A stretch of DNA of 64,000 nt, from NCBI RefSeq assembly GCF_900141815.1, contig NZ_FQYR01000004.1, forward strand, positions 620,001 through 684,000, given 5' to 3'. A program made the position numbers and the translations under genes. Shown here piece after piece: positions 6,981 through 40,579 of the stretch (position 1 is the first letter of the stretch; each line of letters starts with the position of its first letter). Origin of the DNA: Rubritalea squalenifaciens DSM 18772. Its GTDB lineage: Bacteria; Verrucomicrobiota; Verrucomicrobiia; Verrucomicrobiales; Akkermansiaceae. The notes under the pieces were generated by a model that was not told the DNA's origin, searched no databases, and saw nothing but the letters and a program-made list of their open reading frames with translations.

Positions 6981-7157
6981 CAGGAGGAAATTTTATCGGA
7001 AGAAAGTTGGTCTGGTGGGGCGACTTGGATGAGAAAGTTAGGATAGTCTTGTACGGCTTTCCTGTGGTGTCGAGCGTAGCTTTCAGGAATGTGAAAGTTT
7101 AACAAGTCATTTGTTTTGGGTTGAGCAACCCTAGTGAGATGATGCATCTTGTCAGAG

Positions 7158-7739: not shown

Positions 7740-7776
7740 ATTCTGCGGGATTTTTAGTCAATATATGAGAAATTGC

Positions 7777-7804
7777 TTTACAAGGCAGCCTCGATGGCTA
7801 TTTT
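7777..7804 (+). promoter_or_regulatory. rpmJ promoter with GC-rich discriminator
   Basis: A -35 TTTACA (7777-7782) and a -10 TATTTT (7799-7804) are separated by 16 bp and followed at once by CCGCCCC. The same plan, TTGACA-16 bp-TAGTTT-GCCCGCCCC, stands upstream of rpmH at 57074. GC-rich discriminators are a known feature of promoters under stringent (ppGpp) control. The predicted start is about 25 nt before the rpmJ ATG. Confidence 0.6.
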
Positions 7805-7834
7805 CCGCCCCTCAAACCGTAAGTTTTTCCAATC

Positions 7835-7999
7835 ATGAAAGTTCTTTCTTCACTCGCCTCCATGAAACGCCGCCACGAGGATTGCCAAGTGGTGAAGCGC
7901 AAAGGCACACTTTACGTTATCTGCAAGACCAATCCTAAGTTCAAGGCTCGCCAAGGTACCACCAAAGGTACCAAGCTCTCTAAGAAGGGCATCAAGTAA
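7835..7999 (+). CDS. rpmJ: 50S ribosomal protein L36, B-type (zinc-free)
   Basis: Small large-subunit ribosomal protein of 54 aa. It reads [20 protein letters not shown], then [21 protein letters not shown], which matches the B-type L36 paralogue (YkgO-like) that lacks the CxxC/CxxxxH zinc site of the classical 38-aa form. It has an eight- to ten-residue basic tail ([13 protein letters not shown]). It stands alone with its own promoter and terminator, outside any ribosomal operon. A zinc-containing copy may exist elsewhere in the genome; that cannot be told here. Confidence 0.95.
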
Positions 8000-8033
8000 G
8001 TCTTTGACCGGCTTGACCGGATACAAAAATTTT

Positions 8034-8066
8034 AGCCATCTCCTTTTTGGGGAGATGGCTTTTTTA
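8034..8066 (+). terminator. Factor-independent terminator of rpmJ
   Basis: Perfect 10-bp stem AGCCATCTCC/GGAGATGGCT with a 7-nt loop, followed by a T tract, 35 bp after the rpmJ stop. Confidence 0.92.
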
Positions 8067-8143
8067 CGTGTTTGGATGGATCGTTCAGGAAATCTAAATT
8101 TTCTATTTCCAGAGAGCCTGTGTGGCCATTAGGCTGAATCGCG

Positions 8144-10270: not shown

Positions 10271-10300
10271 ACCTTTGCATTTGAGTGGTGTTTTGTACGA

Positions 10301-11887
10301 ATGCTCACAGTGAGTGAGACTTCCATTGGAAAACAGGTGATTGATGCCTGCCTGAGCGCAGGAATACGAGAATATGTGGTTTGTGCAGGGGCTAGAAACC
10401 TCTCATTGGTAGCGGCTCTGGCCGGGGCTGAGGAGGTGATTGTCTGGTCTCATTTTGAGGAGCGAGCTGCAGGCTTCTTTGCTCTCGGTAGAATGATGGA
10501 TTCAAGGGAGCCTTGCGCTGTAGTCACGACAAGTGGTACTGCTGTGGCTGAGCTTTTGCCAGCAGTGATCGAGAGTCATTATCAAGGTCGTCCTTTGGTG
10601 GTTATCAGTGCAGACCGACCTGCGGGGTATCGTGGTTCTGGAGCACCGCAAGTGATCGATCAGGTAGGCATTTTTAATGCCTATGCCGAAAGTTGTATTG
10701 ATGTGCGGACAGGGGCGGAGGAGTGTTTTTCTGGATGGAGTATGCGTCGTCCTTGGCATGTTAATGTCTGTGTGGAGGAGACGGATGCGATGATCGCCAG
10801 TGATGCTCAATTGGCAGAATTTAAGCCTGTACGGGAAAAGCTGGAAGTAGGTGGCTTGTTGAAGTTTTTTGATGCTTGCTGGCAAGGTGTGGTGGTCTGT
10901 CTGGGGGGTCTGGAGCCCGAGGATCGTGGTGAGGTCATGCATTTCCTGCAGGAGATCAAGGTTCCAGTTCTCGCAGATGCTACCAGTGGCTTGCGCGAGT
11001 TATTGGGCAATCTGGTGCTTGCCGATGGGGATCGCGTGCTTAAGAAGGTGAAGCCGGCTAAGGTCTTGCGCATTGGAGAAGTGCCTGTCGGTCGATTTTG
11101 GCGCGATCTTGAGGAGATGCCGGAAGTGGAAGTGCTTTCCCTCTCGAGAACGGGATTCTCGGGGCTGGCCCGTGAGAGCCAGGTAATCACTGGTCAGATC
11201 GGGCGGATTATCCGTGGTGTGGGGGAAATCGGTGAAGTGGGGGATGTGTTGGATCTACTTAAAGAGAATTCAAGACGCTGGAGCCAGATTGATGAGTTGC
11301 TTGAGTCATACCCGGATAGTGAGCCGAGCATGATCCGTACCTTGTCTATTTATGCGAGTATCGCCGATACGCTTTATCTTGGAAATAGTCTGCCAATCCG
11401 TGAATGGGCGCAATTTTCCCAGCGTGAGCATCCTATAGAAATCATCCGAGCTAATCGTGGTGCGAATGGGATTGATGGTCAGCTGGCTACCTGGGCGGGT
11501 CTGACCTACGGTACCGATGATGCCTGGTGTGTGGTGGGTGATTTGACCGCCATGTACGATCTCTCAGCGCCGGCTTTGCTCGATGGTTGTGAGGGGGGGG
11601 GACGCGTGATTGTCGTCTTGAATAACGGAGGGGGGAAGATTTTTGACCGCCTGCCGAGGGTGGCGAAGATGGATGGGCAAGTAAGGGATGTGATTGCTAA
11701 CTCACACGGCTACAGCTTTGAGGCTTGGGCGGCGATGTGGGGAATGGATTATATGCGGGCAGACTCTGCGGAAGAGATGGAGGTCGAAGCGGGCGAGGTT
11801 CCTTTGGTCGTGGAAGTTTGTCCATGTGACAAGCAGACTCAGGCGTTTTGGAAAGCCTATGAGGCCATGGAAGGAGGGGGGGGATGA
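10301..11887 (+). CDS. menD: SEPHCHC synthase MenD (menaquinone biosynthesis)
   Basis: Thiamine-diphosphate enzyme that adds the succinyl semialdehyde unit from 2-oxoglutarate to isochorismate in the classical menaquinone pathway. The N-terminal PYR domain has CAGARNLSLVAAL in place of the usual CPGSR(S/N)AP text, then SHFEERAAGFFALG with the catalytic Glu, and TTSGTAVAELLPAVIES. The C-terminal PP domain carries GNSLPIREW, RGANGIDGQLATWAGL and GDLTAMYDLSAL-like text (GDLTAMYDLSAPALLDG), then LNNGGGKIF. Length 528 aa, slightly short. The 3' end overlaps the next gene by 4 bp. No other men gene is nearby. Confidence 0.94.
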   Translation: MLTVSETSIGKQVIDACLSAGIREYVVCAGARNLSLVAALAGAEEVIVWSHFEERAAGFFALGRMMDSREPCAVVTTSGTAVAELLPAVIESHYQGRPLVVISADRPAGYRGSGAPQVIDQVGIFNAYAESCIDVRTGAEECFSGWSMRRPWHVNVCVEETDAMIASDAQLAEFKPVREKLEVGGLLKFFDACWQGVVVCLGGLEPEDRGEVMHFLQEIKVPVLADATSGLRELLGNLVLADGDRVLKKVKPAKVLRIGEVPVGRFWRDLEEMPEVEVLSLSRTGFSGLARESQVITGQIGRIIRGVGEIGEVGDVLDLLKENSRRWSQIDELLESYPDSEPSMIRTLSIYASIADTLYLGNSLPIREWAQFSQREHPIEIIRANRGANGIDGQLATWAGLTYGTDDAWCVVGDLTAMYDLSAPALLDGCEGGGRVIVVLNNGGGKIFDRLPRVAKMDGQVRDVIANSHGYSFEAWAAMWGMDYMRADSAEEMEVEAGEVPLVVEVCPCDKQTQAFWKAYEAMEGGGG

Positions 11888-12168
11888 AGCAAGGAGGAAT
11901 CGTCCAGACCTGCATTGTCATTGCTCGCGGTGTTCTGAATAGCAGAGATTTGCGGAGGAAGATGATGATGCAGCAAGTCATCATGCTGGTCCTGGCGATC
12001 GCTTTGGGGACCTGGCTGATTGATGATTGGCTGGATGATGGACCCGTACGCTTTTTGGTCTTCTGGGGAGGGGTAGGCCTCTTCGTGGTGATGCTCTGTT
12101 TATTTTGTATCTACGACATGCTCAAGGCCTGGAAAGAGGAGGTTGATGAGGATAAAAAAAATTACTAA
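11884..12168 (+). CDS. Small two-helix membrane protein, unknown function
   Basis: Protein of 94 aa whose ATG overlaps the menD stop in ATGA, so it is probably translationally coupled. Two hydrophobic segments are visible, residues 31-47 (VIMLVLAIALGTWLIDD) and 58-77 (FLVFWGGVGLFVVMLCLFC), with a charged C-terminal tail (KAWKEEVDEDKKNY). I do not recognise a family. Coupling to menD could point to the membrane step of quinone metabolism, but nothing in the sequence proves it. About 250 bp of AT-rich DNA without a recognisable gene follow. Confidence 0.65.
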   Translation: MKQGGIVQTCIVIARGVLNSRDLRRKMMMQQVIMLVLAIALGTWLIDDWLDDGPVRFLVFWGGVGLFVVMLCLFCIYDMLKAWKEEVDEDKKNY

Positions 12169-12418
12169 TCGCGCGCAAAGATCTCGATTTCTGAACACAT
12201 GGTAATTACATGTGAAAGATGATGCTGATGTTTGTCGTAAGTTAATGAAATCCAGAGAGGTATAGGTTTCATTTTGAGCATTAATTGCACCCCTTCTTAG
12301 ACAGATAGGGCAAAGTACTGTTCAAAAAAATACTAAAAAAGAGTGTAATTGCAGGAAAATCAGCGAATTACGAAATTTTCTCTGGCCAAATCATGAAAAT
12401 CGTTTCACTAATCTTGCA

Positions 12419-13036
12419 ATGCGAAACGATACGATAACCAGTGAAGGGACTCTGAGGAAGGTGGGTCGTCGTCGTTTCTTGGGGTTGTTGACCGCGTTCG
12501 GCAGTGGTCTACTCATGGCAGCTCAAGAAGCGAAGGCCGGACTTTTCTACAGTACAAAGTCAGTTGAAGGTATTCCACAGAGTTGGGTAAACCAAAAGGG
12601 CCTCGATGTTCTCCGCTATGCGAATTACATCAAAGGTTTGAAATTGAAAAACGTTACGCCACGTATGGTGCTTAAGCCACATTTTAAGACCCGTGGTAGA
12701 ACCACAAACAGTTTGCCTCCTCGTCACATGTGGAGTCACATCGCAGGAACCCTGCGTGTTATTGACAAATTGGCAGCCCGTTTGAATGCGCCAGTGGATG
12801 ACCTGCTCTCCATTTACCGCAGCCCGCAATACAACCGTGCCGTCCGCGGACGTTCCCGTTCCCAGCATATGGAGAATAGAGCGGTTGATGTGAAGTTCCG
12901 CGGTGTATCAGCTTGGACAGTCAGCTCGAATGCTCGCAAGCTGAGAAACGCTGGTCTCTTCAAGGGGGGCGTGGGGCGCTACAGCAGTTTCACGCACATT
13001 GACACCCGTGGGCACAACGCCGAATGGGGATTCTAA
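12419..13036 (+). CDS. Tat-exported DUF882/M15A-like murein peptidase
   Basis: Probable periplasmic zinc peptidase related to E. coli YcbK/MepK, which cleaves peptidoglycan cross-links. An N-terminal twin-arginine signal is clear: GRRRFLGLLTAFGSGLLMAA, with cleavage after AKA (about residue 40). The catalytic domain contains SQHMENRAVDVKF, giving the HxxxxxxD zinc ligands, and FTHIDTRG with the second His and Asp. A typical neighbour motif YRSPQYN precedes them. Length 205 aa matches the family. It is monocistronic, with 250 bp of AT-rich upstream DNA and a strong terminator after it. Confidence 0.9.
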   Translation: MRNDTITSEGTLRKVGRRRFLGLLTAFGSGLLMAAQEAKAGLFYSTKSVEGIPQSWVNQKGLDVLRYANYIKGLKLKNVTPRMVLKPHFKTRGRTTNSLPPRHMWSHIAGTLRVIDKLAARLNAPVDDLLSIYRSPQYNRAVRGRSRSQHMENRAVDVKFRGVSAWTVSSNARKLRNAGLFKGGVGRYSSFTHIDTRGHNAEWGF

Positions 13037-13073
13037 GAGAATGAGCTTCGGCTAAGAAGCGAATAGTTTTACA

Positions 13074-13111
13074 CAAGCAAGTGACTTCGAGTCACTTGCT
13101 TGTTCTTTTTT
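13074..13111 (+). terminator. Factor-independent terminator after the M15-like peptidase
   Basis: Perfect 13-bp stem CAAGCAAGTGACT/AGTCACTTGCTTG with a 3-nt loop and a following T-rich tract. Confidence 0.93.
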
Positions 13112-13195
13112 AGGAAGCCTCATAGGTGTGGATTTTTTGCTGGCATAGTTAAGCTAAGTTGAAAGAATGCCGAGGCTCACCAGAGCAAGCAATTC

Positions 13196-14542
13196 ATGAA
13201 TATTATCATCATTGGGGCTGGCGAAGTTGGTAGGCATTTGGCTATCTCCTTATCAAGGGAAGCTCACAGCATTACCGTCATTGAGCGTAATGAGGTATTG
13301 GCCTCGGAGCTGGAGCAGACACTGGACGCCCGTGTTATGTGTGCTGATGGTACAAGTGTGGGAACTTTGTTGGAAGCGGGCATCGGGGAGTGTGATCTCT
13401 TCCTGGCGTTGACCAGTGAGAATACGATCAACGTGATGGCTGCCTCTGTCGCCAATAAACTGCAGGCAAAGAAAGTGATCGCTCGTGTGCACCCAGAAGT
13501 GCAACGTGAGGAATGGCTCTTTGATTACCGGGGACATTTCGGTATCGATCACATCTTTAGCTCAGAGAGACTGAGTGCGATCGAGCTAGCAAAGTTTATC
13601 CGGAATCCAGATTCACTCATGGTCGAGGAGATTGCCCGCGGACGTATCGAGCTGCAGCGTGTTCGTGTTAACGGCAAGAGTGATGTCATCGGGAAAAAGC
13701 TCAAGGATATCAAAGCCCCTGAGCGTACACGGATTGCCTCAGTCACGCGTGGAGAGGTGGATTTCATTCCTACCGCTCAGGATGCTCTCGAGGAGGGAGA
13801 CAAAGTCACGATTTTCGGTGAGCCTCGAAAGCTGAGATCTCTGGCGGATAGACTTCAGAAAGGAAGTCAGGAGGACCGTGAGCTAAGGGTGGTGATTTTT
13901 GGCGGCGGTGAATATGGCTTTACCCTCGCCCAGATGCTGGAGAGCTGGAACTGCCGAGTACGCATCTTTGAGAAAGACCCGAGAAGGGCGCAGGAGCTGA
14001 CCGATCGTCTTGCCAATACCACGGTGATCAACACGGATGGTACGGTTCTTGCAGAGCTTGAAGAAGAGCAGGTAGGTGAAGTCGATTTCTTTGTGGCTAC
14101 CAGTGGGAGTGATGAGGATAACGTGATGACCTGTCTCCAGGCCAACAATCTGGGAGCGAAGAACTGTCTGACTCTGATTCACCGAGCTGACTATGCTCAG
14201 GCGATTTCTGGAAGCGGCCGTCACTTTGGAATGCTGGCTGCTGTCAGTCCCAGGGAAGCCACGCGTCGTGACCTAGAGAAATTTATTACCTCGGACAAAT
14301 TCCACGTCGTCAAAAAGATTGGTGCTGGAGAAATTATTGAGACCTCTGTGGAGAAGGGCTCCATTGTCGCGGGTAAGATGGTCGGGGAAATCGACTGGCC
14401 GGAAGGCTGTATTCTCGTTGCCCGTATGCACGGGCTCCATGCGGCGGTGCCAGGACCTGATGATGTGCTAGAGTCCGGTGATTTGGTTTACGCCATGGTT
14501 ACGCCTAAAGTGCGTAAGCAATTCTTAAAGCTAGTTCGCTAA
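13196..14542 (+). CDS. trkA: Trk potassium uptake regulator TrkA
   Basis: Cytoplasmic NAD(H)-binding gating subunit of the Trk/Ktr potassium channel. It has the double layout of full-length TrkA: RCK_N with MNIIIIGAGEVGRHLA (1-16), RCK_C, then a second RCK_N with VVIFGGGEYGFTLAQML (about 232-248) and a second RCK_C ending near 448. SENTINVMAAS and DEDNVMTCLQA are the paired motifs after the nucleotide loops. It is 17 bp upstream of trkH, making a compact operon. Confidence 0.96.
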   Translation: MNIIIIGAGEVGRHLAISLSREAHSITVIERNEVLASELEQTLDARVMCADGTSVGTLLEAGIGECDLFLALTSENTINVMAASVANKLQAKKVIARVHPEVQREEWLFDYRGHFGIDHIFSSERLSAIELAKFIRNPDSLMVEEIARGRIELQRVRVNGKSDVIGKKLKDIKAPERTRIASVTRGEVDFIPTAQDALEEGDKVTIFGEPRKLRSLADRLQKGSQEDRELRVVIFGGGEYGFTLAQMLESWNCRVRIFEKDPRRAQELTDRLANTTVINTDGTVLAELEEEQVGEVDFFVATSGSDEDNVMTCLQANNLGAKNCLTLIHRADYAQAISGSGRHFGMLAAVSPREATRRDLEKFITSDKFHVVKKIGAGEIIETSVEKGSIVAGKMVGEIDWPEGCILVARMHGLHAAVPGPDDVLESGDLVYAMVTPKVRKQFLKLVR

Positions 14543-30363: not shown

Positions 30364-31854
30364 ATGAGTGATCGGTCGAAGGAGTCTTTACTAGAGGAAA
30401 ACAGAGAGCAGAAAGCTGGAGCAGCAGGCTTTCCGTGGATAAGAGCGTCTGTTTTTGTATTGGTGTGTTTTGCTGTCATTGTTCCCTTTACGTCAGTACC
30501 AGAGAAACTCAAAGACTATGCTAAGGAGGTCTATGCTGCTCGACGGGCGGCTAATACCCCATTGCCTCCACCTAAAGAACCTGTAGCAGAAACCACGCCT
30601 GAGGAAGAAATTCCACCACTTCCCAAGCCTGTCGTGGTGGAGCCTGAGGAGCCAGAAGAGCAGATTGTTCCACCACAGGATCATACGGTGGAATCAGGCG
30701 GAGACATCCGCAAGATGTACAAAGGTTTTAAGTTAAAAACTCATGTCAATGTGGACAAGGGCGACTTGGCCTCTCAGGAGAGAGGGGATGAGGAAAGCTA
30801 TACCGCCGAGTACACCCTGAACATCAACCTGCCACAGCCTTCCAAGACGATGAGTGAACTCAGTAAGGTGAATCCTAAGCTGGATGCCATCTTGCCGGGC
30901 CTTGCCTCCATGGTAGAGGATGCTGAGGTTTCTGGGTTTTACTATAACCTTTATCAGAACAAGGTCGATAGGTTGAAACGGGATGCGCTGAAATTGAACG
31001 TCCTTACCACGAAGCACAATTTCTATGATTGTGAGACAATTCTCAATCTTAGCCATCCAGAGAGTAAGCGCAAAGTACTGCTGATGCAGGCCGATATGGA
31101 TGTAGTGTCTGACGGTTCGGACGGGGACCGTTTGTCGACAATGCCTGATGAGATAGTCAACTCAACGCATTACCAGCCCTTTACGAGTTATGGGTGGCCG
31201 AAGCAGACTAGAACGGAGAATCCAATGGTAGCTGGCTGGAAGAAGCGGATCGAAAATGCCAAGAAGGAGATTGCCGACCCTGCTACCAAGGAGGCTCGCA
31301 AGCAATGGCTCAAGGATCGTATCGAAATGCTGAAGCGCGGGATCGCTGATATGAAGGCGCGAAGTTTCCTGATAGCAGAGTATGATCCATTCATCGTGAT
31401 GCCTGTGAATGTGATCACGAACCGGGATGATAAGCATGCTGCCAAGGTGGGCGACTACGCAGTTGTGATTCATGACGGAAAGGTCTATCCAGCGATCGTA
31501 GGGGACGGAGGTCCTACTTTTAAAGTGGGTGAAGCATCCTTGCGCTTGGCTAAAGAGATTAACGCGAACTCCTCTCCCTACAGAAGACCTGTGTCCAATC
31601 TCACGGTGACCTACATCGTCTTCAGTGGTAGCCGGGATGCTGACAAGTCAGCACCTGATTACAAGAAGTGGCACCAGGAGTGCAGCAGTCTGCTAGAGGA
31701 GATCGGTGGGCTAGGTGAGGGCTACGAACTTCATCAATGGGAGGATCTGTTAGCCAAGACACCAGAGGCTGCCGACGAAGTAGAGGAAGATGCTGCGGCT
31801 GAAGCAGAAGAAAGTGGCGAAGATGCCGAGCAAGAAAAAGCCCCGCAAGAATAG
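30364..31854 (+). CDS. Membrane-anchored glycoside hydrolase family 75 (chitosanase-fold) protein
   Basis: Predicted extracytoplasmic hydrolase anchored by one N-terminal helix (about residues 24-44), followed by a Pro/Glu-rich linker (66-108) and a domain of unknown type to about 215. The C-terminal domain follows the GH75 order: [11 protein letters not shown], then [28 protein letters not shown] and [11 protein letters not shown], then [11 protein letters not shown]381 and E390 are nine residues apart, as the catalytic Asp and Glu are in fungal GH75 chitosanases. About 95 residues separate the first and second blocks, holding a charged helical insert (about 286-330). The tail is Glu/Ala-rich. 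Substrate (chitosan-like or peptidoglycan-like glucosaminyl polymer) is unknown. Its 3' end holds the terminator of the convergent operon. Confidence 0.78.
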
Positions 31855-31863
31855 AGCGGGGCT
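31833..31863 (-). terminator. Terminator of the six-gene minus-strand operon, inside the GH75 3' end
   Basis: Stem AGCCCCGC (31839-31846)/GCGGGGCT (31856-31863). Read on the minus strand it is followed by a T-rich tract (complement of 31833-31838). The loop contains the TAG stop of the GH75 gene, so coding sequence and terminator overlap. It is 33 bp beyond the last gene of the operon. Confidence 0.8.
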
Positions 31864-31895: not shown

Positions 31896-33299
31896 TTACC
31901 AGCTTGGGCCTACCCTGACCGCATTCATATTCGGGTCATAGATGTTGAACTCGATTTGGCTGAAGGCGTCCAGACTGAAAGTCTTCTCTCCAAATGCTTG
32001 ATGATAGCCGGTCAGCTTGCTCGCATCGAGTGAGATCAGCTTCAGGATCACCCAGCCGCCATTTTTAAAATAGGCCTTAACGTCTTGAGGTTCCTTCTTA
32101 GGCTGATGCTTGTCAGACGACTTCATGTAAATGGAGCGCATCGCTGCGACTGGAATAGGAATGGGGGTATATTTGGTTTCCACTTTGAGGACACCATTTT
32201 GAACTTTTCCAAGTTGACCGATAATGGCGTCTCCATTTTTCAAGAGAATACGCTGACCTTCACCCTTGAGTTTCTTGAATGCATTCTCGTCATCATTGGT
32301 AGGGAGCCGACCGGACCAACGGGAGAGTCTTAGGTTCCTGATACGGATGGGGGCACGCTGATCGCTCAGGAAATGGAGGGCTGAGCCGAAGTTTTCAGGG
32401 CTAGCATTGCGGTCGCTGAGTTCGGCGATCTTTTCGCCATCGAAATAGATTTCAAAGGTGCCCTTTTTCTTGTTCATGAAGATTTCCACATAGGTGGTAT
32501 CCATGCCACTGAGCTGACGGACTGAAGTGGATCCATCCATGGGGTCACTTCCATCTTCAGAGGTGACCTTGCGCATGTAGATGTAGCTGTTGCGCATGAC
32601 CAGTTCGTAGTAGTTGGATGGCCTGGTTGACTCAAAGTCGTCCGAATAGAGCAAGAGTTTGAGGTTTAAAGAGCTTTTCCAGTCCATGTAGAAGCTCAGG
32701 TGGGAGAGGTCATCCAAGCCGATGTCCTTGGAAATCTGGCCGCCGCTGGTGCCACCGCTGATCAAGGAAGCGTTTTTATAGTTCCAGCTGCCGTCATCAT
32801 CGTGCTGGTACCATTCTTCGAGGCTGTTAGGACCAGAGTAGATATGGGAGTTTTGAGAGGTGATCTCCATGTTGACGATGAACTTCCGGTCTACCGTGAT
32901 TTCACCAGCGTAGTCAGTGTCGATCGTGATGGATTCATCAGTCACTTGGACGAGTTGGCCCTTGAGTTGGTCATGGGCTTGTTCGTTGCCAAATCGGTGC
33001 TGGATAGAAATGATCGCTTCGTGATCTTTCTTTTCGGGCTTGCTGTCTTCTGATTCAGAGCTTTGGAGATCGATCTTGAGAAGGTTGTCAGTTCTCAAGT
33101 CCACCGATTGTTTCACTGAGGGATTCTTGACGACGATACGGCCTTCTTTCCAGTTTTCAATTTGGCCAGAGAAGCTATCGCCATTCAGGAAACTGAGGCG
33201 GGTAGTCATTGGTGCAGCATCCTGAGCAGGGCTGGTAACAGTACCCAGACAGGCAACAGCCATCATGGAGATAAAGCGTCTTGTAGGCTTGGTTTTCAT
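31896..33299 (-). CDS. Secreted NGD-repeat/LamG-like protein, paralogue C
   Basis: Exported protein of 467 aa, last gene of the operon. A signal peptide precedes about residue 27. Two N-terminal repeats follow: SFLNGDSFSGQIENWKEGRI (36-55 on) and DQLKGQLVQVTDESITIDTD (110-129) ending in YAGEITVDRKF. The junction HIYSGPNSLEEW (152-163) opens a beta-rich LamG/concanavalin-like domain (about 160-345) with YYELVMRNSYIYMRKVTSED and IRIRNLRLSRW. Two more repeats close it: LLKNGDAIIGQLGKVQNGVL and AYFKNGGWVILKLISLDASK. It is homologous to the two genes upstream. Function is unknown; the repeats resemble those found before DUF481 barrels, and the middle domain suggests glycan or surface binding. Confidence 0.8.
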   Translation of the reverse strand: MKTKPTRRFISMMAVACLGTVTSPAQDAAPMTTRLSFLNGDSFSGQIENWKEGRIVVKNPSVKQSVDLRTDNLLKIDLQSSESEDSKPEKKDHEAIISIQHRFGNEQAHDQLKGQLVQVTDESITIDTDYAGEITVDRKFIVNMEITSQNSHIYSGPNSLEEWYQHDDDGSWNYKNASLISGGTSGGQISKDIGLDDLSHLSFYMDWKSSLNLKLLLYSDDFESTRPSNYYELVMRNSYIYMRKVTSEDGSDPMDGSTSVRQLSGMDTTYVEIFMNKKKGTFEIYFDGEKIAELSDRNASPENFGSALHFLSDQRAPIRIRNLRLSRWSGRLPTNDDENAFKKLKGEGQRILLKNGDAIIGQLGKVQNGVLKVETKYTPIPIPVAAMRSIYMKSSDKHQPKKEPQDVKAYFKNGGWVILKLISLDASKLTGYHQAFGEKTFSLDAFSQIEFNIYDPNMNAVRVGPSW

Positions 33300-33325
33300 G
33301 GCAAATTGGGGTCTTTAATTGGGTG

Positions 33326-34627
33326 CTACTTGTTTTGGCTAGCTGCGGAGTTGAGAGTGCTGAAAGCGGTTCGCTTGATGTTGCACTCACCGAGGATAGG
33401 GTGGCGTGTGGTGGCCACATCTTTATTCAGAGATGTCTGCCCTAAGGAAATCTTGCCACCACCAGCAAGTGTAGCGGTATAGGATGATTTGAGTTTCTCC
33501 TCAGAAGGCTCCTGCTCTTTCAGATAGAGGATGGAGGCTCTGGATGACGGTACCTGCATAGGTTTCTTAGCAAATTGGTAATCAAAGAAGATGGTCAACT
33601 GGTCGTTGATCTTCTCGATTTTTGGAGATTCTCCTGAGAAGCGGAATCCCTCACGATCAAACAAGGTATCTGCTTTTTTATTAGGAATTTCCTCATTCTT
33701 CTGACGGGTGATGGCATTTCCTCCCCATTCCAAGATTTGAAGATTTTTGATTTTCAGGGTGTCGCCGTCCCGCTGGTTGGATTCCAAAATAACGAAAGAC
33801 CCGAGAGGGGCGGAAGCGGCATTGTCATCGAATGTACCGTGCTCGACTCCGTCCAGATAAAGCACAGTCTGCTGGTTCTGGCGGTCCACCTTGAGTTCCA
33901 CATTGACCGTGGAGTTTTTGATCTCACGTGAGCGAATGCTTACTCGGCCCAATTTGTCAAAGTTTCGGGGAGTCACCCGGTTGAACTGAAAGCCGGAAGA
34001 GGTGAAGTCGAGGTAGTAGCGGTCGATGCGGTCTACGGTGGTGTTCTCTCTACCGCAGAGATGCAATCTGAAACGCGGACTACTGCCATCCCATTCCAGG
34101 TTGAAGCGAATGATGAAATTATTGGGAAGTTCGAACTCTTTGGCGAGCAGTCCCTTGCCATTGACGTTAAGTACTCCTTGTTCGAGAACCCAGTTTTCTG
34201 CCGTAGTCCATTCCTTGAGACTATTCGGTCCACTATAGACTAGGGATTCAGGCTTATTCTCAAAGCTGATCTTGGTCACCTTGGAGCGTGGGATGCTGAA
34301 ATCACCAGCGTACCAAGTAGAGAAGGCAATGGATTTATCATCCATTTTCTTCAGGTCACACGGAAGTTCATCACCATTGCTCAGGTAAATGCGCTCGCCA
34401 TGGTTATGAGTGCTTGTTCCTTCTTGCTCGAAGGTCAGTGAGTCGAGGCCCTCAGCATTGATTTCCAGGGTCTCTGTGGCTTCCGGGTATTGGAATCGAA
34501 CCGCTCCTGTGTCGGTGATATCGATGATGGTGCCTGAGATGACGTCGCCATTTTTGAACTTTACTGTATCGCTGGCGCTGACCGCGCAAGTGAGGGCGAT
34601 AGATGCGGCTGTTAGTTTGCGAAGCAT
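33326..34627 (-). CDS. Secreted NGD-repeat/LamG-like protein, paralogue B
   Basis: Exported protein of 433 aa with signal peptide (cleavage near residue 18). Repeat 1 is VKFKNGDVISGTIIDITDTG (22-41); repeat 2 is YLSNGDELPCDLKKMDDKSI (81-100) ending in WYAGDFSIPRSKVTKISF. LVYSGPNSLKEW (129-140) opens the LamG-like domain, which includes FRLHLCGRENTTVDRIDRYY and LKIKNLQILEW. The C-terminal repeats are the most degenerate of the three paralogues (FRFSGESPKIEKINDQLTIF; ATLAGGGKISLGQTSLNKDV), ending with the ATRHPILGECNIKRTAFSTL block, which parallels EHPILGKLKLKYTYLSSIDY in paralogue A. It lies 26 bp upstream of paralogue C and 10 bp downstream of paralogue A. Confidence 0.8.
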   Translation of the reverse strand: MLRKLTAASIALTCAVSASDTVKFKNGDVISGTIIDITDTGAVRFQYPEATETLEINAEGLDSLTFEQEGTSTHNHGERIYLSNGDELPCDLKKMDDKSIAFSTWYAGDFSIPRSKVTKISFENKPESLVYSGPNSLKEWTTAENWVLEQGVLNVNGKGLLAKEFELPNNFIIRFNLEWDGSSPRFRLHLCGRENTTVDRIDRYYLDFTSSGFQFNRVTPRNFDKLGRVSIRSREIKNSTVNVELKVDRQNQQTVLYLDGVEHGTFDDNAASAPLGSFVILESNQRDGDTLKIKNLQILEWGGNAITRQKNEEIPNKKADTLFDREGFRFSGESPKIEKINDQLTIFFDYQFAKKPMQVPSSRASILYLKEQEPSEEKLKSSYTATLAGGGKISLGQTSLNKDVATTRHPILGECNIKRTAFSTLNSAASQNK

Positions 34628-34637
34628 GACTGATCGA

Positions 34638-36077
34638 TTATTTCAGTTGTAAGTTCCAGCGGTCAATGATTGAAGCGTCAGGAGTGTAGTCGATAGAGGA
34701 GAGATAGGTGTATTTGAGCTTGAGTTTGCCAAGGATGGGGTGCTCGAGTTCTACACCTTCCTCATTTCCGGAGACAGGATTCGCTGTGAGGCGGCCACTG
34801 CCATAAAAGCGGAATGCAACATCATTGGAGCGAGCTTCATCTTTTTTAGCGAAACCTTCAGTAGCGAAGTTCAGACTCTTGACCTGGTCTGTAGGGATTT
34901 CCATTTCCGCATAGGGGCCTTTGAGTGTGACCACATTGTCTTGCAGTTTGAGGATCTTGCCCGAGAAACGGTCAGTGCCGTTGTTGAGCAGAGCGATATC
35001 CCTCTGTTCATTCTGTAGACTCAGGGCGGAGTCTTTGATGCCATTCCAGGGGGTCATGACAATGTTAGAGATTCGGGAAATGCGGTTTGAGCCATTGAGG
35101 TTGGCAAAGCCAAACTTATTACCTTTTGCTTCGTAGCCAATGTCACTCAAGTTCCACTGTGCGATAAGGGCTCCATCTGCATAGCTGGAAACCACCTTCT
35201 TCTGTCTATCGACACGCAGCTCAAAATGGGTGTCGGCATAATCTTCGCTGGAGTATCTGGCAGAGGTAGAGCCCAGAGTAGTAGGGATTTTCGTGACGAT
35301 AGGTGCACCATTCTCATCGAATGAGTATTGGCTGAGGTAGGTTACACCGGAGGTAATACGGAGGAGAAGACAGGAGCCAAAGTTTTCGGTGATGCTTTTG
35401 GTATAAGCATGCACCTTGGTATCGTCCTCTTCTTTCCTTTCTGGAATGGAGAGATTGGCATGAAAGGCGAGATAGATATTTGAGTAACGAGCCATCTCTG
35501 CCTTGAAGGTCATGCGGAATGCATCTGGCAGTTCTGTATTTTGGTTGATGATGGCACCAGTGTGGCCATCGTTGAGCCAGCTGAAGTTAGCGTACTCCCA
35601 TACCTTTTGACTTTCATCCTCTTCTTCTTCTTTGAAGGCTACCGTTTTCCAGTTATCTTCGACAAAGGGACCTTGGTAGAGAACTTGTTGTCCGTGAGGC
35701 TGGATCTCGCAGTTGTAAACTTGATTGCGATTGATCTGTAGTGTGCCCGCATAGTCAGTGCGTATGGTGCATTTGCTCTCGTCGATGGAGAGTATCTCAC
35801 ATGGGAGGACATCTCCATTGATGAGGGTAACTGTATGGGTATGTGTGAAAGGTTTGGTCAGTAGGCCTTTGTTGAAAATGACTCTGCGGATTTCAGAGGT
35901 GGCAAAGGAAATGGGCTTCTCCGCCTGCTGATTTGTCCACACGAGTTTGCCTTCAGCTGAGAATCCATTGAATGAACCGTGAAGGGTATCATTGTTTTTA
36001 AAGTTCAGAAGGTCTTCTTCAGCCGATAGCGGGAGAAGGCTAGAAAATAGAAGTGTAGGTAGAAGAATGCGGTTCAT
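34638..36077 (-). CDS. Secreted NGD-repeat/LamG-like protein, paralogue A
   Basis: Exported protein of 479 aa, signal peptide to about residue 19. Repeat 1 is LNFKNNDTLHGSFNGFSAEG (24-43); repeat 2 is VTLINGDVLPCEILSIDESK (83-102) ending in DYAGTLQINRNQVYNCEI. VLYQGPFVEDNW (132-143) opens the LamG-like domain, which carries an acidic insert (EEEEDES) and ends at ISRISNIVMTPW. Repeats 3 and 4 follow (LLNNGTDRFSGKILKLQDNV; FYGSGRLTANPVSGNEEGVE). Its ATG overlaps the stop of the toroid-protein gene by 4 bp, so the two are probably translated together. Function unknown; see findings. Confidence 0.8.
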   Translation of the reverse strand: MNRILLPTLLFSSLLPLSAEEDLLNFKNNDTLHGSFNGFSAEGKLVWTNQQAEKPISFATSEIRRVIFNKGLLTKPFTHTHTVTLINGDVLPCEILSIDESKCTIRTDYAGTLQINRNQVYNCEIQPHGQQVLYQGPFVEDNWKTVAFKEEEEDESQKVWEYANFSWLNDGHTGAIINQNTELPDAFRMTFKAEMARYSNIYLAFHANLSIPERKEEDDTKVHAYTKSITENFGSCLLLRITSGVTYLSQYSFDENGAPIVTKIPTTLGSTSARYSSEDYADTHFELRVDRQKKVVSSYADGALIAQWNLSDIGYEAKGNKFGFANLNGSNRISRISNIVMTPWNGIKDSALSLQNEQRDIALLNNGTDRFSGKILKLQDNVVTLKGPYAEMEIPTDQVKSLNFATEGFAKKDEARSNDVAFRFYGSGRLTANPVSGNEEGVELEHPILGKLKLKYTYLSSIDYTPDASIIDRWNLQLK

Positions 36078-37069
36078 TTTTCGTAAATGGGAAGAAATCT
36101 GTAATTCAATGCGAGGGAGAGGAGGGCGCCAGCGGTGCTGAAAGTTTGGCCTTTGTTACCTGGGAATGAGCCATCCGCTGCCTGAATCGTGGAGAGGTAA
36201 CGTACATTTTTTTCATTCCAAGCTTTCCAGACATCTTCATCTGCATGGAACAAAGCCTGGGACATGTAGTACTCGAAGTAGTATGGATAATACTTGTCTC
36301 TGTAATCCATCTGCTTCTTGAGATACTCTAGGGATTCTTGGAAGCCTTTGGCGTCTTTATTTTTAGAGAGGGAATAGCAGAGCGAACCGATTGCTGTGAG
36401 GGTAGGCTTGCCGCCACCACGTGATGTGTAGCCATAGGCTCCATTGCTGCCGCGGCATGAGGCCATATACTTAAGACCTTTTTCAATCGATGCGTCAGGC
36501 ACCGGCACACCAGCATTACGAGCTGCGAGAAGAGCGACTAGCTGACAACCAGCGACTGTGGAGTCAGCATCATTGCTTTCAGGGGTGTAGCGCCATCCTC
36601 CTTTAGGGTTGTTCTCTTGAGCTGTCAGAATCAATTTCACGGCGTTTTTCAGTGCTGGAGCGAGGCGTTTGTCTTCCACCATGCCGTAGGATTCAGCTAG
36701 AGCGAGGGTGGCGAAGCCGTGGTTGTACATGCTATTGCCAATGTACCCGTTAGATTCCTTCTGTTGCTTGAGCAGGAAGTCGAGACCTTTGCGAATATTG
36801 TCAGCGTATGGGCCGTGGTTGGCATCCTCTCCATGAGCTAGGAAGGCGAGTACGCACAGGCCAACGACGCCTGGATAGTTGCCGTAAGTGCCGGACCAGC
36901 TACCATCGTCATTCTGAGTGTTAGCCAGATAGCGGAGACCTTTCGTGTAGACTGTCTCCACCGATGCAGGGATGGGGTCTTTTTGACGGCGGGGAATCCC
37001 TTGACCACTGGAAATACCAGCCATGAGGATGGAGGATGCAAGAATAGAGGCTATGATAGATTTGCGCAT
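36074..37069 (-). CDS. Secreted prenyltransferase/squalene-oxidase-repeat (alpha/alpha toroid) protein
   Basis: Exported protein of 331 aa with a signal peptide (cleavage near ISSGQG, about residue 23). It consists of repeated helix pairs with QW-like motifs, for example LANTQNDDGSWSGTYGNY, LTAQENNPKGGWRYTPESND and IQAADGSFPGNKGQTFSTAG, the pattern of terpene-cyclase/prenyltransferase toroids. The cyclase DxDD motif is absent, and export argues against a terpene role; a binding or scaffolding function is more likely. Its stop overlaps the paralogue A start (ATGA). A relative with the same YRFLP-type ending is at the window's end (63067). Confidence 0.83.
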   Translation of the reverse strand: MRKSIIASILASSILMAGISSGQGIPRRQKDPIPASVETVYTKGLRYLANTQNDDGSWSGTYGNYPGVVGLCVLAFLAHGEDANHGPYADNIRKGLDFLLKQQKESNGYIGNSMYNHGFATLALAESYGMVEDKRLAPALKNAVKLILTAQENNPKGGWRYTPESNDADSTVAGCQLVALLAARNAGVPVPDASIEKGLKYMASCRGSNGAYGYTSRGGGKPTLTAIGSLCYSLSKNKDAKGFQESLEYLKKQMDYRDKYYPYYFEYYMSQALFHADEDVWKAWNEKNVRYLSTIQAADGSFPGNKGQTFSTAGALLSLALNYRFLPIYEK

Positions 37070-37081
37070 GAATCCCGGGTA

Positions 37082-37768
37082 TTAGCGGTTGGCTTTCTCT
37101 GAAGTGGCTTTGTTAAAGGCATCGAGTGCTTTGTGAAGCTCGCGTGGAAGAGCGGAGCCTGCAGTGCCAGAGCTCTTTGGTACGCGGCGCACGCTGCTTT
37201 TGCCATCGGCATTGCCGTCCACGTCTTTGTGAGCCATATCTGAATCGCCAGTCATGCCTTCACCACCTTTGGAGCCAGGTTGTTGTCCTGGTTGCTCGCC
37301 TTGGCCTTCACCTTCACCGGGCTGTTTGCCCATCATGCGCTGGAGCATCTCCATCATGGCGCTGTCCTGTGGCTGCTGGCCATTGGATGATTGCTGTTGC
37401 TGCTTTTGTTTTGCGGCTTCGTAGATAAGTTCGATGATCTCCGTCTCGATCGCAATGGTTTCACCGCCCGTATCCTTGCCCTCGAGTTTGTCGGTAGCTT
37501 CACCCATGAGCATCTCTGCTTTCTCGAGAAGTTGGATGACCTTATCGTCTGTCTGCTCCTGGATGAGGTCCTGCACGTCAGCAGAGAGTTCATCCTGATC
37601 GTAGGATGTCTTCTTGGAACCTGTAGCATGCTTCTTGAGAATCTCTGCTGGGGAGCCTTCAGACTTCTTCGGTTTGAACTTTTCCAAGTCTTTCTCGAAG
37701 TCGGATTGGGCGTGCACGATTCCGCTCATAGCAGCGGCTGCAGTTAGATAGAGGAAAGTCTTTTTCAC
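37082..37768 (-). CDS. Secreted low-complexity protein, unknown function
   Basis: Protein of 228 aa with a clear signal peptide (MKKTFLYLTAAAAMSGIVHA, cut before QSD). The first part is charged and helical (about 25-105), including DLIQEQTDDKVIQLLEKAEM. Residues about 118-190 are Gln/Gly/Pro/Glu-rich (QQQQQSS; GEGEGQGEQPGQQPG) and probably disordered. The C-terminus returns to a helix (LPRELHKALDAFNKATSEKA). No family recognised. It lies 6 bp after the DUF4175 gene and 12 bp before the toroid gene, so it is very likely co-expressed and could be a periplasmic partner of the DUF4175 protein. Confidence 0.75.
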   Translation of the reverse strand: MKKTFLYLTAAAAMSGIVHAQSDFEKDLEKFKPKKSEGSPAEILKKHATGSKKTSYDQDELSADVQDLIQEQTDDKVIQLLEKAEMLMGEATDKLEGKDTGGETIAIETEIIELIYEAAKQKQQQQSSNGQQPQDSAMMEMLQRMMGKQPGEGEGQGEQPGQQPGSKGGEGMTGDSDMAHKDVDGNADGKSSVRRVPKSSGTAGSALPRELHKALDAFNKATSEKANR

Positions 37769-37774
37769 GGTAGG

Positions 37775-40510
37775 CTATGGGATAGGGGTTGGGCTAGGAA
37801 CAGTGGGGTTGTTCTCAAGGGCACGCTTGAGTTGCTCCAGTGAACGAGTACGGGCTCGTATGTCTTGCTCCTTTTGAATCATCTTCATGACTTTTAGCAT
37901 GAACTCAAAATCTTGGTCTTCGTTGTTGGACTGGCCACCACCGCCGCCGCCACCGCCACCTTGGTCGTTGGCGTTCTCGAGCTCTTTAGCCCATTTTCGC
38001 AATTGCTCGGCCATGTCTTTGGCCTGGTTCATGGAGAGGTTGGCCTGTGCTTTTTTGATGTCGTTTTTGAGGATATCCATGCGGTCGTCGATGGCTGACT
38101 CGCGCATGCTGTCTAGGAGCTTCTTGTGAACTTCTTTCTGGGTTCTGGAGTAAAAGTGCCCCAAGTCTTCCTGAATCCATCGAACATCTGAGTTGGTCTG
38201 GTCTTGTTGAGTGTAAAGCTCCAGGAAGGTGCGCTGGTCTTCAGGATCAAGATCTTCATAGCTGAGGCCGATCAGCATTTCGGAGGCATCCATTGAGCGG
38301 TTAAGCTCACGAATCAGTATGTTGGCGATGCCATCTTCCTCAGACGCAGCCTTTTTCAAGCGATTGACAAAGGTGCCAGCCTCAAGTTGCTTGTTGGCTT
38401 CGTTCGCTTTACTGATGGTTTCCTGCATCTTTTGCAGTAGCTCTTCCTGCTTCTTTACAGCGTCTTGGACGTCCTGGTCGGTTTTCTCCTGCGTGTTACG
38501 CTGGTTCTGGGAATCTTGCAGCTTTTGGGCAATGTCTGGCATTTCCTTCTCCGCCATTTCCTTCATTTGCTCAGCGCTTTCAGCCAGCTTTTTCATCGTA
38601 TCGGTATCGATGTCTCCATTGCGCGTGGCCTCCTTGAAGATGTCTTCCATTTCCTCCGCGAGGTCTTTCATGCGGTCAGCATTGTCTAGTTCCGCGTTTT
38701 CCTGCTGGCCTAGCTTGTCTCGGTTCTCATCTTTCTGGAGTTCCTCTCCGGTCTTGCGGTCCAGGCGTTTGTTCTCGTCCAAACTTTCCTGCTCGTTACG
38801 CATGAGATCCTCCAGGCGGTTGATGGCGTCCTTGGTGCGACGCTCGATGAGTTGCCTGTGCTCATCGCGAGTGAGGATGTAAACAGTCACTGGAGCCGAA
38901 TAGATGCGGCCTCGGTCTGTCTTGTAGTCTTCTGTCCATGCCCTGAGAGTGAGCTTTTGAGGCTCAATGTTGTAGGCCTCAAAGGAGAAGTCGACAATAT
39001 CGGTGAGTGTAGTCTGGTCAGGTGCACCTTGGATGAGTGTCAGCTCTCCCTTGGCTGGGGTTTTAGCGGTCGGCTTAGTGAACTCTCCCTGCCATTCGAT
39101 ACCGGCAGCTTTCAGTCCGTAGTCATCTTCGGCCTGGATCTCAAAGGTGAGTGTTTCTTCAGCTAGTTTAAAAATTTCCGAAGGGACGCCTTGAATGTAA
39201 ACATGAGGCTCCATGTCTTTCTGGCTATTGAAAGTAAGGACACTCTTCTCTCTGGCCGTGATTCCATATTTGTCCGTCCAGTTGAGAGGGAGCTTGATGT
39301 TGGCTGAAACGGCATGGAAAGAATCAGTCTTGATATGGTTGCCTGAATAGGTGGCCTTCAGCTCTTGGAAGGTGGGCTGAGACGCTTCAGCACTTGGCTT
39401 GGCAGTTTCTTCCTCAGCAGAAGGTGGCTCTGGAAGTTCTTGTGCATCGATGGCTTCCAAGATGGGGGTGATTTCCATTGGTCCTGCTTCGACAGCCGAG
39501 AGGTCTCTGTCAGCTTTTGCCATGACAGTGACCTTGCTGCCTTCGAGGATCGTGGCCACACCTGAAGAAAGATCGATGACCTGAGCTTTACGCTGCAGGT
39601 ATTCTGGGTACTCAACTTTGGCTGAAATCTCAGTAAGGGTAGGGCGATAGACTGGCTTGACGAGGATATCGTGATAAGAATCGCCAATGCGCAGGTTGAC
39701 CGTTTCGTCTTTGCTTTGCCCTTTAAAGTCAAAGGCGTAAGTACGGTCGTTTCGTTTAACGGTTTGCCATTCACGCATGCCTTGGCGGGCCTTGGCTTCA
39801 TCTGGCTTGTCTGAATCCTTGGTGAGCTGGAAGTCGATGGAGTAGTCCTCACCATGGGGAACATGATAGGGCTGGGGTAACTGGTCTTTATCCAGCTTAG
39901 TGTATGTGAATCTCTCGGTGTCAGAAAGTGGCAGCAACCAGCGTTTCAAGGCATTGAAGCTGGCATCCGGTGACATCACGCCAGCGATGACTGTCAGGAA
40001 AAAGAGCAGGACCACTACCAGTCCCCACTTGTGGTGGCTGGATGCGGGCAGTGCGCGGTCAAGATCGCGCTCGCGCGCTGCTTTGGCGACTTCTTCCATA
40101 GCTGCGGCCCTCAGCCGTGGAGACATGGAGGTGGCAGCCTCATTCTGGTCCTGAAGCTCCACCACTCCGAGTAGTCGGTCACCGAGTCGCGGGTAGTGTC
40201 TGGCAATTAATCTGGCGAGCTGGTTTTCCCGGCGGTGCTTGAATACCCAGCGGTTGATCCAGATTGGTGCGAAAATAGCGAAAAGTGAGACGCCGGTGAT
40301 CAGGATGATGAGGCGAACGAGGGGGGGAGTGGGCCAGAAGCGGTCCAAACCATAGACGAGAATGTAGGAAAACAAGAGGCCAAATAAGCCTGCCATAGTG
40401 GCTTCAAGTATCTTGATTCTCCAGAGCTGTTTACGGAACTGCTCCAACTGAATTCTGAGAGATTCAGGTAGTGGAGCCAAATGTTCGGTTTTGGGTTTCT
40501 CTTCTGACAT
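37775..40510 (-). CDS. DUF4175-family membrane protein with coiled-coil periplasmic region
   Basis: First gene of the operon, 911 aa. Two transmembrane helices at about 36-55 and 66-86 are followed by a basic loop (RWVFKHRRENQLARLIARHY) and a third helix at about 163-179. Then come beta-rich, probably Ig-like extracytoplasmic regions (about 195-550). The stretch from about 555 to 850 is almost wholly charged helix and predicted coiled coil (RRTKDAINRLEDLMRNEQES; KEMAEKEMPDIAQKLQDSQN). A tract of nine Gly at about 850-858 precedes a last helix and a Pro-rich end. DUF4175 proteins are known in Bacteroidetes, Planctomycetes and Verrucomicrobia, but their role is undefined. A strong promoter stands just upstream. 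Confidence 0.82.
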   Translation of the reverse strand: MSEEKPKTEHLAPLPESLRIQLEQFRKQLWRIKILEATMAGLFGLLFSYILVYGLDRFWPTPPLVRLIILITGVSLFAIFAPIWINRWVFKHRRENQLARLIARHYPRLGDRLLGVVELQDQNEAATSMSPRLRAAAMEEVAKAARERDLDRALPASSHHKWGLVVVLLFFLTVIAGVMSPDASFNALKRWLLPLSDTERFTYTKLDKDQLPQPYHVPHGEDYSIDFQLTKDSDKPDEAKARQGMREWQTVKRNDRTYAFDFKGQSKDETVNLRIGDSYHDILVKPVYRPTLTEISAKVEYPEYLQRKAQVIDLSSGVATILEGSKVTVMAKADRDLSAVEAGPMEITPILEAIDAQELPEPPSAEEETAKPSAEASQPTFQELKATYSGNHIKTDSFHAVSANIKLPLNWTDKYGITAREKSVLTFNSQKDMEPHVYIQGVPSEIFKLAEETLTFEIQAEDDYGLKAAGIEWQGEFTKPTAKTPAKGELTLIQGAPDQTTLTDIVDFSFEAYNIEPQKLTLRAWTEDYKTDRGRIYSAPVTVYILTRDEHRQLIERRTKDAINRLEDLMRNEQESLDENKRLDRKTGEELQKDENRDKLGQQENAELDNADRMKDLAEEMEDIFKEATRNGDIDTDTMKKLAESAEQMKEMAEKEMPDIAQKLQDSQNQRNTQEKTDQDVQDAVKKQEELLQKMQETISKANEANKQLEAGTFVNRLKKAASEEDGIANILIRELNRSMDASEMLIGLSYEDLDPEDQRTFLELYTQQDQTNSDVRWIQEDLGHFYSRTQKEVHKKLLDSMRESAIDDRMDILKNDIKKAQANLSMNQAKDMAEQLRKWAKELENANDQGGGGGGGGGQSNNEDQDFEFMLKVMKMIQKEQDIRARTRSLEQLKRALENNPTVPSPTPIP

Positions 40511-40549
40511 GTCTGGATGGATTAAACTCTCTGGGAGGGGATCTGGGTA

Positions 40550-40579
40550 TAATACTCGTCTACCCCTATGGGTATCAAG
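40550..40579 (-). promoter_or_regulatory. Promoter of the six-gene DUF4175/NGD operon
   Basis: On the minus strand a -35 TTGATA (40574-40579) and a -10 TATTAT (40550-40555) are separated by 18 bp. Each box differs from the sigma-70 consensus at one base. The predicted transcript starts about 30 nt before the DUF4175 ATG at 40510. No other good promoter was seen between the six genes. Confidence 0.65.

What the first reader, a model, noticed from the sequence alone, without database searches (positions are those of the whole stretch)
31896..40510. Six-gene envelope operon without a described function (DUF4175, disordered protein, alpha/alpha toroid, three NGD/LamG proteins)
All six genes are on one strand with gaps of 6-26 bp or 4-bp ATGA overlap, one near-consensus promoter upstream (40550-40579) and one terminator at the end (31833-31863). 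Five products have signal peptides and the sixth is a membrane protein with a long extracytoplasmic coiled coil, so the set looks like one cell-envelope machine. No gene matches a known secretion, pilus or polysaccharide system. This is my best candidate for an undescribed system.
Basis: partly seen in the sequence, partly recalled or inferred. Interest (0 to 1): 0.68.

Follow-up and report, generated by a model that had tools for sequence, protein, structure and literature searches.

The report
Detached half of a MoxR envelope operon
The six genes are a real, conserved cell-envelope operon, but they are the broken-off second half of a widespread MoxR-ATPase/BatA-type operon whose first half still sits elsewhere in the same genome and is inherited with it, so the set is an undescribed variant of a known kind of machine rather than a new kind.

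Summary
The six ORFs are at the stated coordinates with gaps of 26, 10, -4, 12 and 6 bp, and a convincing terminator follows. The promoter match is no better than chance. The order DUF4175-like > disordered > toroid > three NGD/LamG genes is kept across the window's family, including Rubritalea, Roseibacillus and Luteolibacter; one relative lacks the disordered gene. The set is not self-contained. In many other families of the class the same genes directly follow MoxR-DUF58-BatA-GATase-like genes on one strand. In the window's family the operon has split: the cognate MoxR-DUF58-BatA-GAT locus is on another contig, and its BatA falls in one strongly supported clade with the BatA genes of unsplit operons. 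BatA and the DUF4175-like gene are still inherited together: 39 of 39 class genomes with this BatA have the DUF4175-like gene, and 8 near-complete relatives lack both. The 'disordered protein' is the split-off C-terminal domain of the DUF4175-like protein. That protein is a divergent DUF4175 relative; the NGD proteins are predicted to be four small barrels around a lectin-like jelly roll. Best reading (function inferred): the periplasmic half of a MoxR/vWA envelope-maturation machine related to the Rhizobium RL3499-RL3502 operon, with a toroid and lectin-like proteins added.

The parts
37775..40510 (-). Divergent DUF4175-type protein, 911 aa: three TM helices (34-52, 67-85, 162-180), predicted cytoplasmic loop 86-161 with the most conserved 15-mer YPRLGDRLLGVVELQ, three Ig-like domains, long coiled coil
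   Evidence: ORF; AF2 mean pLDDT 85.7; Foldseek to tandem Ig/macroglobulin-like domains; hydropathy; conservation by region; hhalign to alphaproteobacterial DUF4175 proteins, Prob 99.0, E 4.9e-18
37082..37768 (-). Secreted, low-complexity 228-aa protein = split-off C-terminal domain of the DUF4175-type protein
   Evidence: One polypeptide of about 1030 aa in other families and in L040/L059; profile positions 854-1016 hit this ORF at E 1.7e-26 in the own genome
36074..37069 (-). Secreted single-domain alpha/alpha toroid (squalene cyclase/prenyltransferase-like), the most conserved member of the set
   Evidence: PF13243 42.9 bits over cut-off 26.1; 41-65% identity to orthologs across families, mean column identity 49% against 30% (DUF4175-type) and 22% (NGD)
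34638..36077 (-). NGD/LamG protein 3
   Evidence: ORF; paralog of the other two, matched by their profiles at E 1e-105 or better; alignment
33326..34627 (-). NGD/LamG protein 2
   Evidence: ORF; paralog; alignment
31896..33299 (-). NGD/LamG protein 1: two small beta-barrel units, ConA/CBM66-like jelly roll, two more barrel units
   Evidence: AF2 mean pLDDT 86.6; CBM66 TM-score 0.66-0.71 by target length; barrel assignment read from the strand pattern
31837..31860 (-). Intrinsic terminator of the operon, overlapping the 3' end of the convergent GH75-like gene
   Evidence: fold -17 kcal/mol, z -4, U run; sequence
40549..40578 (-). Candidate promoter (TTGATA-18-TATTAT); not above chance in number

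Best explanation
The six genes are the distal, extracytoplasmic half of an ancestral verrucomicrobial operon MoxR-DUF58-BatA(vWA + GATase-like)-GATase-like membrane protein-DUF4175-toroid-(NGD/LamG)n. In the window's family the operon broke into two unlinked loci and the DUF4175-type protein broke into a membrane part and a secreted part; the halves are still inherited together. Shown here: shared ancestry, the split, and co-inheritance. Inferred: the cytoplasmic MoxR hexamer and DUF58 work on the cytoplasmic faces of BatA, GAT and the DUF4175-type protein (its conserved loop YPRLGDRLLGVVELQ is the candidate docking site) and use ATP to remodel the complex. The DUF4175-type protein spans the periplasm as a scaffold (Ig domains, coiled coil, trans-acting C-terminal domain), and the toroid and the lectin-like NGD/LamG proteins act at or bind envelope polymers. 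The net role is maturation or integrity maintenance of the envelope, as reported for the Rhizobium operon RL3499-RL3502.
For: Gene order MoxR-DUF58-BatA-GAT-DUF4175-TOR-NGD on one strand in several families (L036, L042, L046, L047, L053, L057, L069; partial at contig or locus ends in others). BatA tree: the separate-locus BatA genes of the window's family, including the own genome's, lie with the operonic BatA genes in a 21-row clade at SH-aLRT 100 on a branch of 1.88, and paralogs lie outside. Co-occurrence: BatA ortholog (at least 161 bits) in 39 of 188 class genomes, all 39 with the DUF4175-type gene; in the window's family 18 have both and 8 (at least 98% complete) have neither (Fisher p 3.6e-36 overall without correction for relatedness). 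The disordered protein equals the C-terminal domain of the fused form. Alphaproteobacteria carry homologous MoxR-DUF58-BatA/DUF4159-GAT operons (GAT profile E 1e-40 to 3e-50; BatA 9e-18 to 6e-25) and a DUF4175 protein on the same replicon in Shinella and Azospirillum. Gemmatirosa has MoxR-DUF58-BatA-DUF4175 in one operon. RL3499 matters for membrane integrity and cell morphology (PMC3893208). NorQD shows a MoxR/vWA pair exerting force on a linker (PMC13036017). The vWA domain of the Bat-like BB0173 faces the periplasm (PMC5700661).
Against: No biochemical or expression data. Four genomes have the DUF4175-type gene but no detected BatA ortholog: two are incomplete (G045, G048) and two are not (G062, G175). 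The eight relatives that lack both may be a single loss. The homology to RL3499-RL3502 was tested on Shinella, Methylobacterium and Azospirillum operons, not on R. leguminosarum's own genes, and the original paper was not in the library. Toroid and NGD genes are absent from the alphaproteobacterial loci, so their role cannot be read from there. One relative (L096) lacks the disordered gene at this locus.
Confidence: 0.7

Rival explanations
1. Stand-alone surface-polysaccharide or glycan-binding module: the toroid and lectin-like proteins bind or modify a glycan, with the DUF4175-type protein as their own anchor; MoxR-Bat linkage elsewhere is incidental.
For: CBM66-like jelly roll in the NGD protein; toroid weakly like pectate lyase; a convergent GH75-like gene next door, also in Rubritalea.
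Against: Co-inheritance with BatA persists where the loci are unlinked; the DUF4175-type protein also sits in a MoxR-BatA operon in Gemmatirosa, where no toroid or NGD gene was detected nearby. No catalytic glycan enzyme is among the six.
Confidence: 0.15
2. Isoprenoid or hopanoid-type lipid processing by the toroid, with the other genes as delivery and anchoring parts.
For: Toroid matches SQHop_cyclase_C above cut-off and aligns to squalene and lanosterol cyclases; invariant H117, D167, D169, W159 and tyrosines.
Against: A single toroid of about 310 aa with an apparent signal peptide, while cyclases have two domains and act at the cytoplasmic side of the membrane (general knowledge); no terpene-synthesis gene in the operon; the toroid fold also occurs in non-enzymes such as the macroglobulin TED domain (weak hit).
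Confidence: 0.08
3. The same MoxR-linked machine, but devoted to oxygen or redox stress as the Bat (aerotolerance) name suggests, rather than envelope integrity.
For: BatA N-terminal domain present; BB0173-region genes respond to oxygen (PMC5700661).
Against: Architecture matches the DUF4159-type operon of Alphaproteobacteria better than BatA-BatB-BatC-BatD: no TPR or BatD was identified in this locus, and a separate cluster with two BatA-like genes exists in the own genome (C4:371079-374048).
Confidence: 0.07

Closest known systems
Rhizobium leguminosarum RL3499-RL3502 operon type (MoxR-DUF58-BatA/DUF4159-GATase-like) of Alphaproteobacteria
   Same: The window genome's partner locus (L071) has the same four genes in the same order, homologous by profile; a DUF4175 protein exists on the same replicon in two alphaproteobacteria; an envelope role is reported for RL3499.
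   Different: The verrucomicrobial version has no DUF4159 match on BatA, places DUF4175 in the same operon ancestrally, and adds a toroid and NGD/LamG proteins; in the window's family it is split in two.
Bacteroides/Leptospira/Borrelia Bat (aerotolerance) operon
   Same: MoxR, DUF58, BatA N-terminal plus vWA domain.
   Different: No BatC/TPR or BatD was identified in this locus; extra DUF4175, toroid and NGD genes.
DUF4175 / TIGR02302 proteins (PF13779)
   Same: N-terminal TMs, beta region, coiled coil and Q/G-rich C-terminus; colinear profile alignment, Prob 99.0, E 4.9e-18.
   Different: Below PF13779 cut-off; three Ig-like domains; C-terminal domain is a separate protein in the window's family.
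Squalene-hopene cyclase / prenyltransferase toroids
   Same: alpha/alpha toroid, PF13243 over cut-off.
   Different: Single domain, apparently secreted, own invariant residues; function unknown.
RavA-ViaA and NorQ-NorD (MoxR/vWA pairs)
   Same: MoxR AAA+ plus vWA partner logic (PMC9489729; PMC13036017).
   Different: There the vWA partner is a soluble or membrane-associated protein; here BatA is an integral membrane protein with its vWA domain predicted on the periplasmic side.

Membership tests
MoxR-DUF58-BatA (MRP/Bat-type) operon | MoxR AAA+ ATPase gene | tested here: met
   Own-genome L071:8392-9426, AAA_3 E 2.4e-63; not in the window
MoxR-DUF58-BatA (MRP/Bat-type) operon | DUF58 gene next to MoxR | tested here: met
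   L071:7490-8386, PF01882 E 3.4e-48
MoxR-DUF58-BatA (MRP/Bat-type) operon | BatA N-terminal domain plus vWA domain | tested here: met
   L071:5484-7466, PF07584 61.5 bits over cut-off 25.9; VWA_2 E 0.0017, under its cut-off
MoxR-DUF58-BatA (MRP/Bat-type) operon | The six window genes lie in the same operon as these | tested here: not met
   Not in the window genome or its family (separate contigs or loci), but met in several other families
MoxR-DUF58-BatA (MRP/Bat-type) operon | Own-genome BatA is the ortholog of operonic BatA | tested here: met
   One clade, SH-aLRT 100, branch 1.88
Bacteroides Bat operon in the strict sense | BatB (second vWA), BatC (TPR), BatD | tested here: inconclusive
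   None identified among the genes scanned at L071; no dedicated search with BatC or BatD models
DUF4175 (PF13779) | Score over Pfam cut-off 27.3 | tested here: not met
   No hit for the window protein; 4 of 35 relatives hit, best E 0.003; Gemmatirosa relative 26.0 bits
DUF4175 (PF13779) | Detectable profile homology and same architecture | tested here: met
   hhalign Prob 99.0, E 4.9e-18, colinear over 779 columns at low -mact; 3 TM + beta + coiled coil
Squalene-hopene cyclase | Toroid domain match | tested here: met
   PF13243 42.9 bits, cut-off 26.1
Squalene-hopene cyclase | Two-domain protein of about 630 aa, hopene_cyclase equivalog score | tested here: not met
   331 aa; TIGR01507 37.9 bits against cut-off 431
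Rhizobium RL3499-RL3502 type | DUF4159 domain on the BatA-type protein | tested here: not met
   Present in Shinella and Azospirillum (E 2e-52, 3e-54), no hit in L071 BatA; that RL3501 carries it is recalled, not tested
Rhizobium RL3499-RL3502 type | Role in envelope integrity and morphology | not testable with these tools
   Needs mutants; reported for RL3499 (PMC3893208)

The most novel reading that the evidence does not exclude
A verrucomicrobial MoxR-driven trans-envelope machine of about eight to eleven proteins, not previously described, in which an ATP-driven MoxR/vWA complex acts through a DUF4175 scaffold on a periplasmic toroid and surface-polymer-binding NGD/LamG proteins, and which has repeatedly broken into unlinked loci while remaining one functional unit.
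Probability: 0.4. Interest if true: 0.68.

Novelty: new variant of a known kind. Interest (0 to 1): 0.5.

Why it matters
MoxR-DUF58-BatA operons occur in many bacteria, yet the envelope targets of most are unknown. This locus supplies candidate partners (a DUF4175 scaffold, a very conserved toroid and lectin-like proteins) that stay linked by inheritance even when unlinked on the chromosome. It gives an annotation for a family of hypothetical proteins across Verrucomicrobiota, apparently including Akkermansia, and a concrete docking hypothesis to test.

Tried and rejected
PF13779 in the own genome: no hit, so the label needed profile-profile proof. Foldseek top hits for the NGD protein were the jelly rolls of clostridial neurotoxin binding domains, with TM-scores of about 0.3 or below and rmsd near 20 A: only a shared generic jelly-roll fold, not kinship; CBM66 is the sensible match. 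Foldseek for the DUF4175-type protein gave only tandem Ig-like domains (complement/macroglobulin MG, receptor ectodomains). I considered a macroglobulin/TED reading (MG-like Ig domains plus toroid, weak TED hit) and rejected it: I saw no thioester motif in the toroid alignment, and the domains sit in different proteins. Defence system: no PADLOC hit in ten proteins. The first alphaproteobacterial region fetched (Paroceanicella) is a true Bat operon with BatD, so it was not used. Paracoccus L103 has its BatA and DUF4159 parts in different frames, so Shinella and Azospirillum were used instead. A BLASTP of the two BatA proteins alone was not convincing; homology rests on profiles. Paper searches for DUF4175 with MoxR, or MoxR with BatA in Verrucomicrobia, found nothing.
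Full report
OBSERVATION. The six minus-strand ORFs exist as stated, with gaps of 26, 10, -4, 12 and 6 bp. The terminator is convincing (-17 kcal/mol, z -4, U run). The promoter-like match at 40578-40549 scores 10 of 12, but the region holds no more such matches than shuffles do (6 against 7.0 +/- 2.9). Five N-termini look like signal peptides by inspection, and the 911-aa protein has three TM-like segments.

CONSERVATION. A class-wide search of 188 genomes found the 911-aa protein in 51, in 34 of 111 genera; some of the weaker hits are paralogs. The locus was then read in about 40 genomes with profiles built from the window's proteins. Across the window's own family the order is DUF4175-type > disordered > toroid > NGD/LamG genes (two in the Akkermansia-like genus, three elsewhere among those read). 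All 11 named relatives found in GTDB genomes (Rubritalea, Roseibacillus, Luteolibacter and uncultured kin) keep the order, except that one (L096) lacks the disordered gene; two of them have four or five NGD/LamG genes.

WHERE IT COMES FROM. Outside the window's family the same genes follow, on the same strand, MoxR, DUF58, BatA and a GATase-like membrane protein (complete in L036, L042, L046, L047, L053, L057 and L069; several others are cut by contig or locus ends). In the window genome that first half sits on another contig (C5, locus L071: MoxR 8392-9426, DUF58 7490-8386, BatA 5484-7466, GAT 3217-5460, all on the minus strand), confirmed by Pfam for MoxR, DUF58 and BatA. A BatA tree puts the separate-locus copies of the family together with the operonic copies (21 rows, SH-aLRT 100, branch 1.88) and the paralogous clusters outside. 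In other families too (for example G153, G120, G128, G171), the DUF4175-type gene lies well inside a contig without GAT upstream while the BatA ortholog is on another contig, so separation seems to have happened more than once.

CO-INHERITANCE. BatA orthologs score 161 bits or more, and the next hits drop to 86. All 39 genomes with the ortholog have the DUF4175-type gene; 39 of 43 the other way round (counting DUF4175 matches of E 4e-19 or better), the exceptions being G045 and G048 (74% and 85% complete), G062 and G175. In the window's family 18 have both and 8 near-complete genomes have neither. These 8 share a genus and may be one loss event, so the Fisher values overstate independence. Concordant presence and absence inside families f2, f3, f6 and f32 adds weaker support.

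THE DISORDERED PROTEIN. In other families the DUF4175-type protein is one chain of about 1030 aa whose last 165 residues align with the disordered protein. Profile positions 854-1016 hit the window ORF at E 1.7e-26, and the same split is seen across the family, except in two Akkermansia-like-genus genomes (G166, G087) where it is one chain. The tree allows either one split with a later re-fusion or two splits. The domain therefore probably works in trans (inference).

WHAT THE PROTEINS LOOK LIKE. DUF4175-type protein: mean pLDDT 85.7, three TMs, three Ig-like domains, long coiled coil. Its most conserved 15-mer, YPRLGDRLLGVVELQ (106-120), lies in the loop between TM2 and TM3, which by charge is cytoplasmic: the inferred docking site for MoxR or DUF58. 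NGD protein 1: mean pLDDT 86.6; the strand pattern reads as two small barrels, a jelly roll, then two more barrels; the jelly roll matches CBM66. The toroid is the most conserved member and matches the squalene cyclase C-terminal domain, but it is a single, apparently secreted domain.

RELATION TO KNOWN SYSTEMS. Alphaproteobacteria have MoxR-DUF58-BatA/DUF4159-GAT operons homologous to the partner half, and a DUF4175 protein elsewhere on the same replicon in Shinella and Azospirillum. hhalign links that DUF4175 family to the window protein (Prob 99.0, E 4.9e-18 for one comparison). Gemmatirosa joins MoxR-DUF58-BatA and a DUF4175-type gene in one operon. In Clostridia (Vescimonas) an annotated 'terpene cyclase/mutase' toroid gene sits directly before MoxR-DUF58, so the toroid-MoxR association may recur, though homology to this toroid was not tested. 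The published lead is R. leguminosarum RL3499-RL3502: RL3499 is important for membrane integrity and cell morphology (PMC3893208). The original paper is cited in PMC5118466 and PMC5700661 but could not be read. That RL3500-RL3502 are DUF58, BatA/DUF4159 and GAT genes is recalled, not tested.

MECHANISM. Shown: ancestry, split, co-inheritance. Predicted: topology and folds. Inferred: MoxR and DUF58 drive conformational work on membrane partners, as NorQ does on NorD (PMC13036017), with the six genes forming the periplasmic reach of the machine. Confidence that the six genes are the detached half of this operon type is about 0.9; for the envelope-maturation function about 0.5; the stated 0.7 is for the combined statement weighted towards the first.

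VERDICT. A real and useful annotation: a new variant of a known kind, interest about 0.5.

Noticed in passing
L072 (own genome C2:1081000-1100000), 4350-13284: A second, still contiguous MoxR-DUF58-BatA-GAT-DUF4175-type cluster (930 aa, very diverged); a paralogous version of the machine in the same genome.
   Followed up: partly
own genome C4:371079-374048 (L073): DUF58 with two further BatA-like hits in a row, possibly the classical Bat operon of this organism.
   Followed up: no
window 63067-63966: A 299-aa minus-strand ORF matched by the toroid profile (E 3e-80) although Pfam gives no hit at 0.01; a possible second toroid relative.
   Followed up: no
window 30364-31854: Convergent gene with a glyco_hydro_75 (chitosanase) domain well over cut-off; conserved next to the operon in Rubritalea profundi (L091).
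   Followed up: partly
L096 12347-12410: A relative whose locus lacks the disordered gene entirely, with five NGD/LamG genes instead of three.
   Followed up: partly
L115 6880-10042: In Vescimonas (Clostridia) an annotated terpene cyclase/mutase toroid gene directly precedes MoxR and DUF58.
   Followed up: partly
G100:C1: Contig length 2,664,102 equals that of the Akkermansia muciniphila type strain as I recall it (not verified); it carries both halves, with the DUF4175-type gene near 2.41 Mb and BatA near 0.165 Mb.
   Followed up: no
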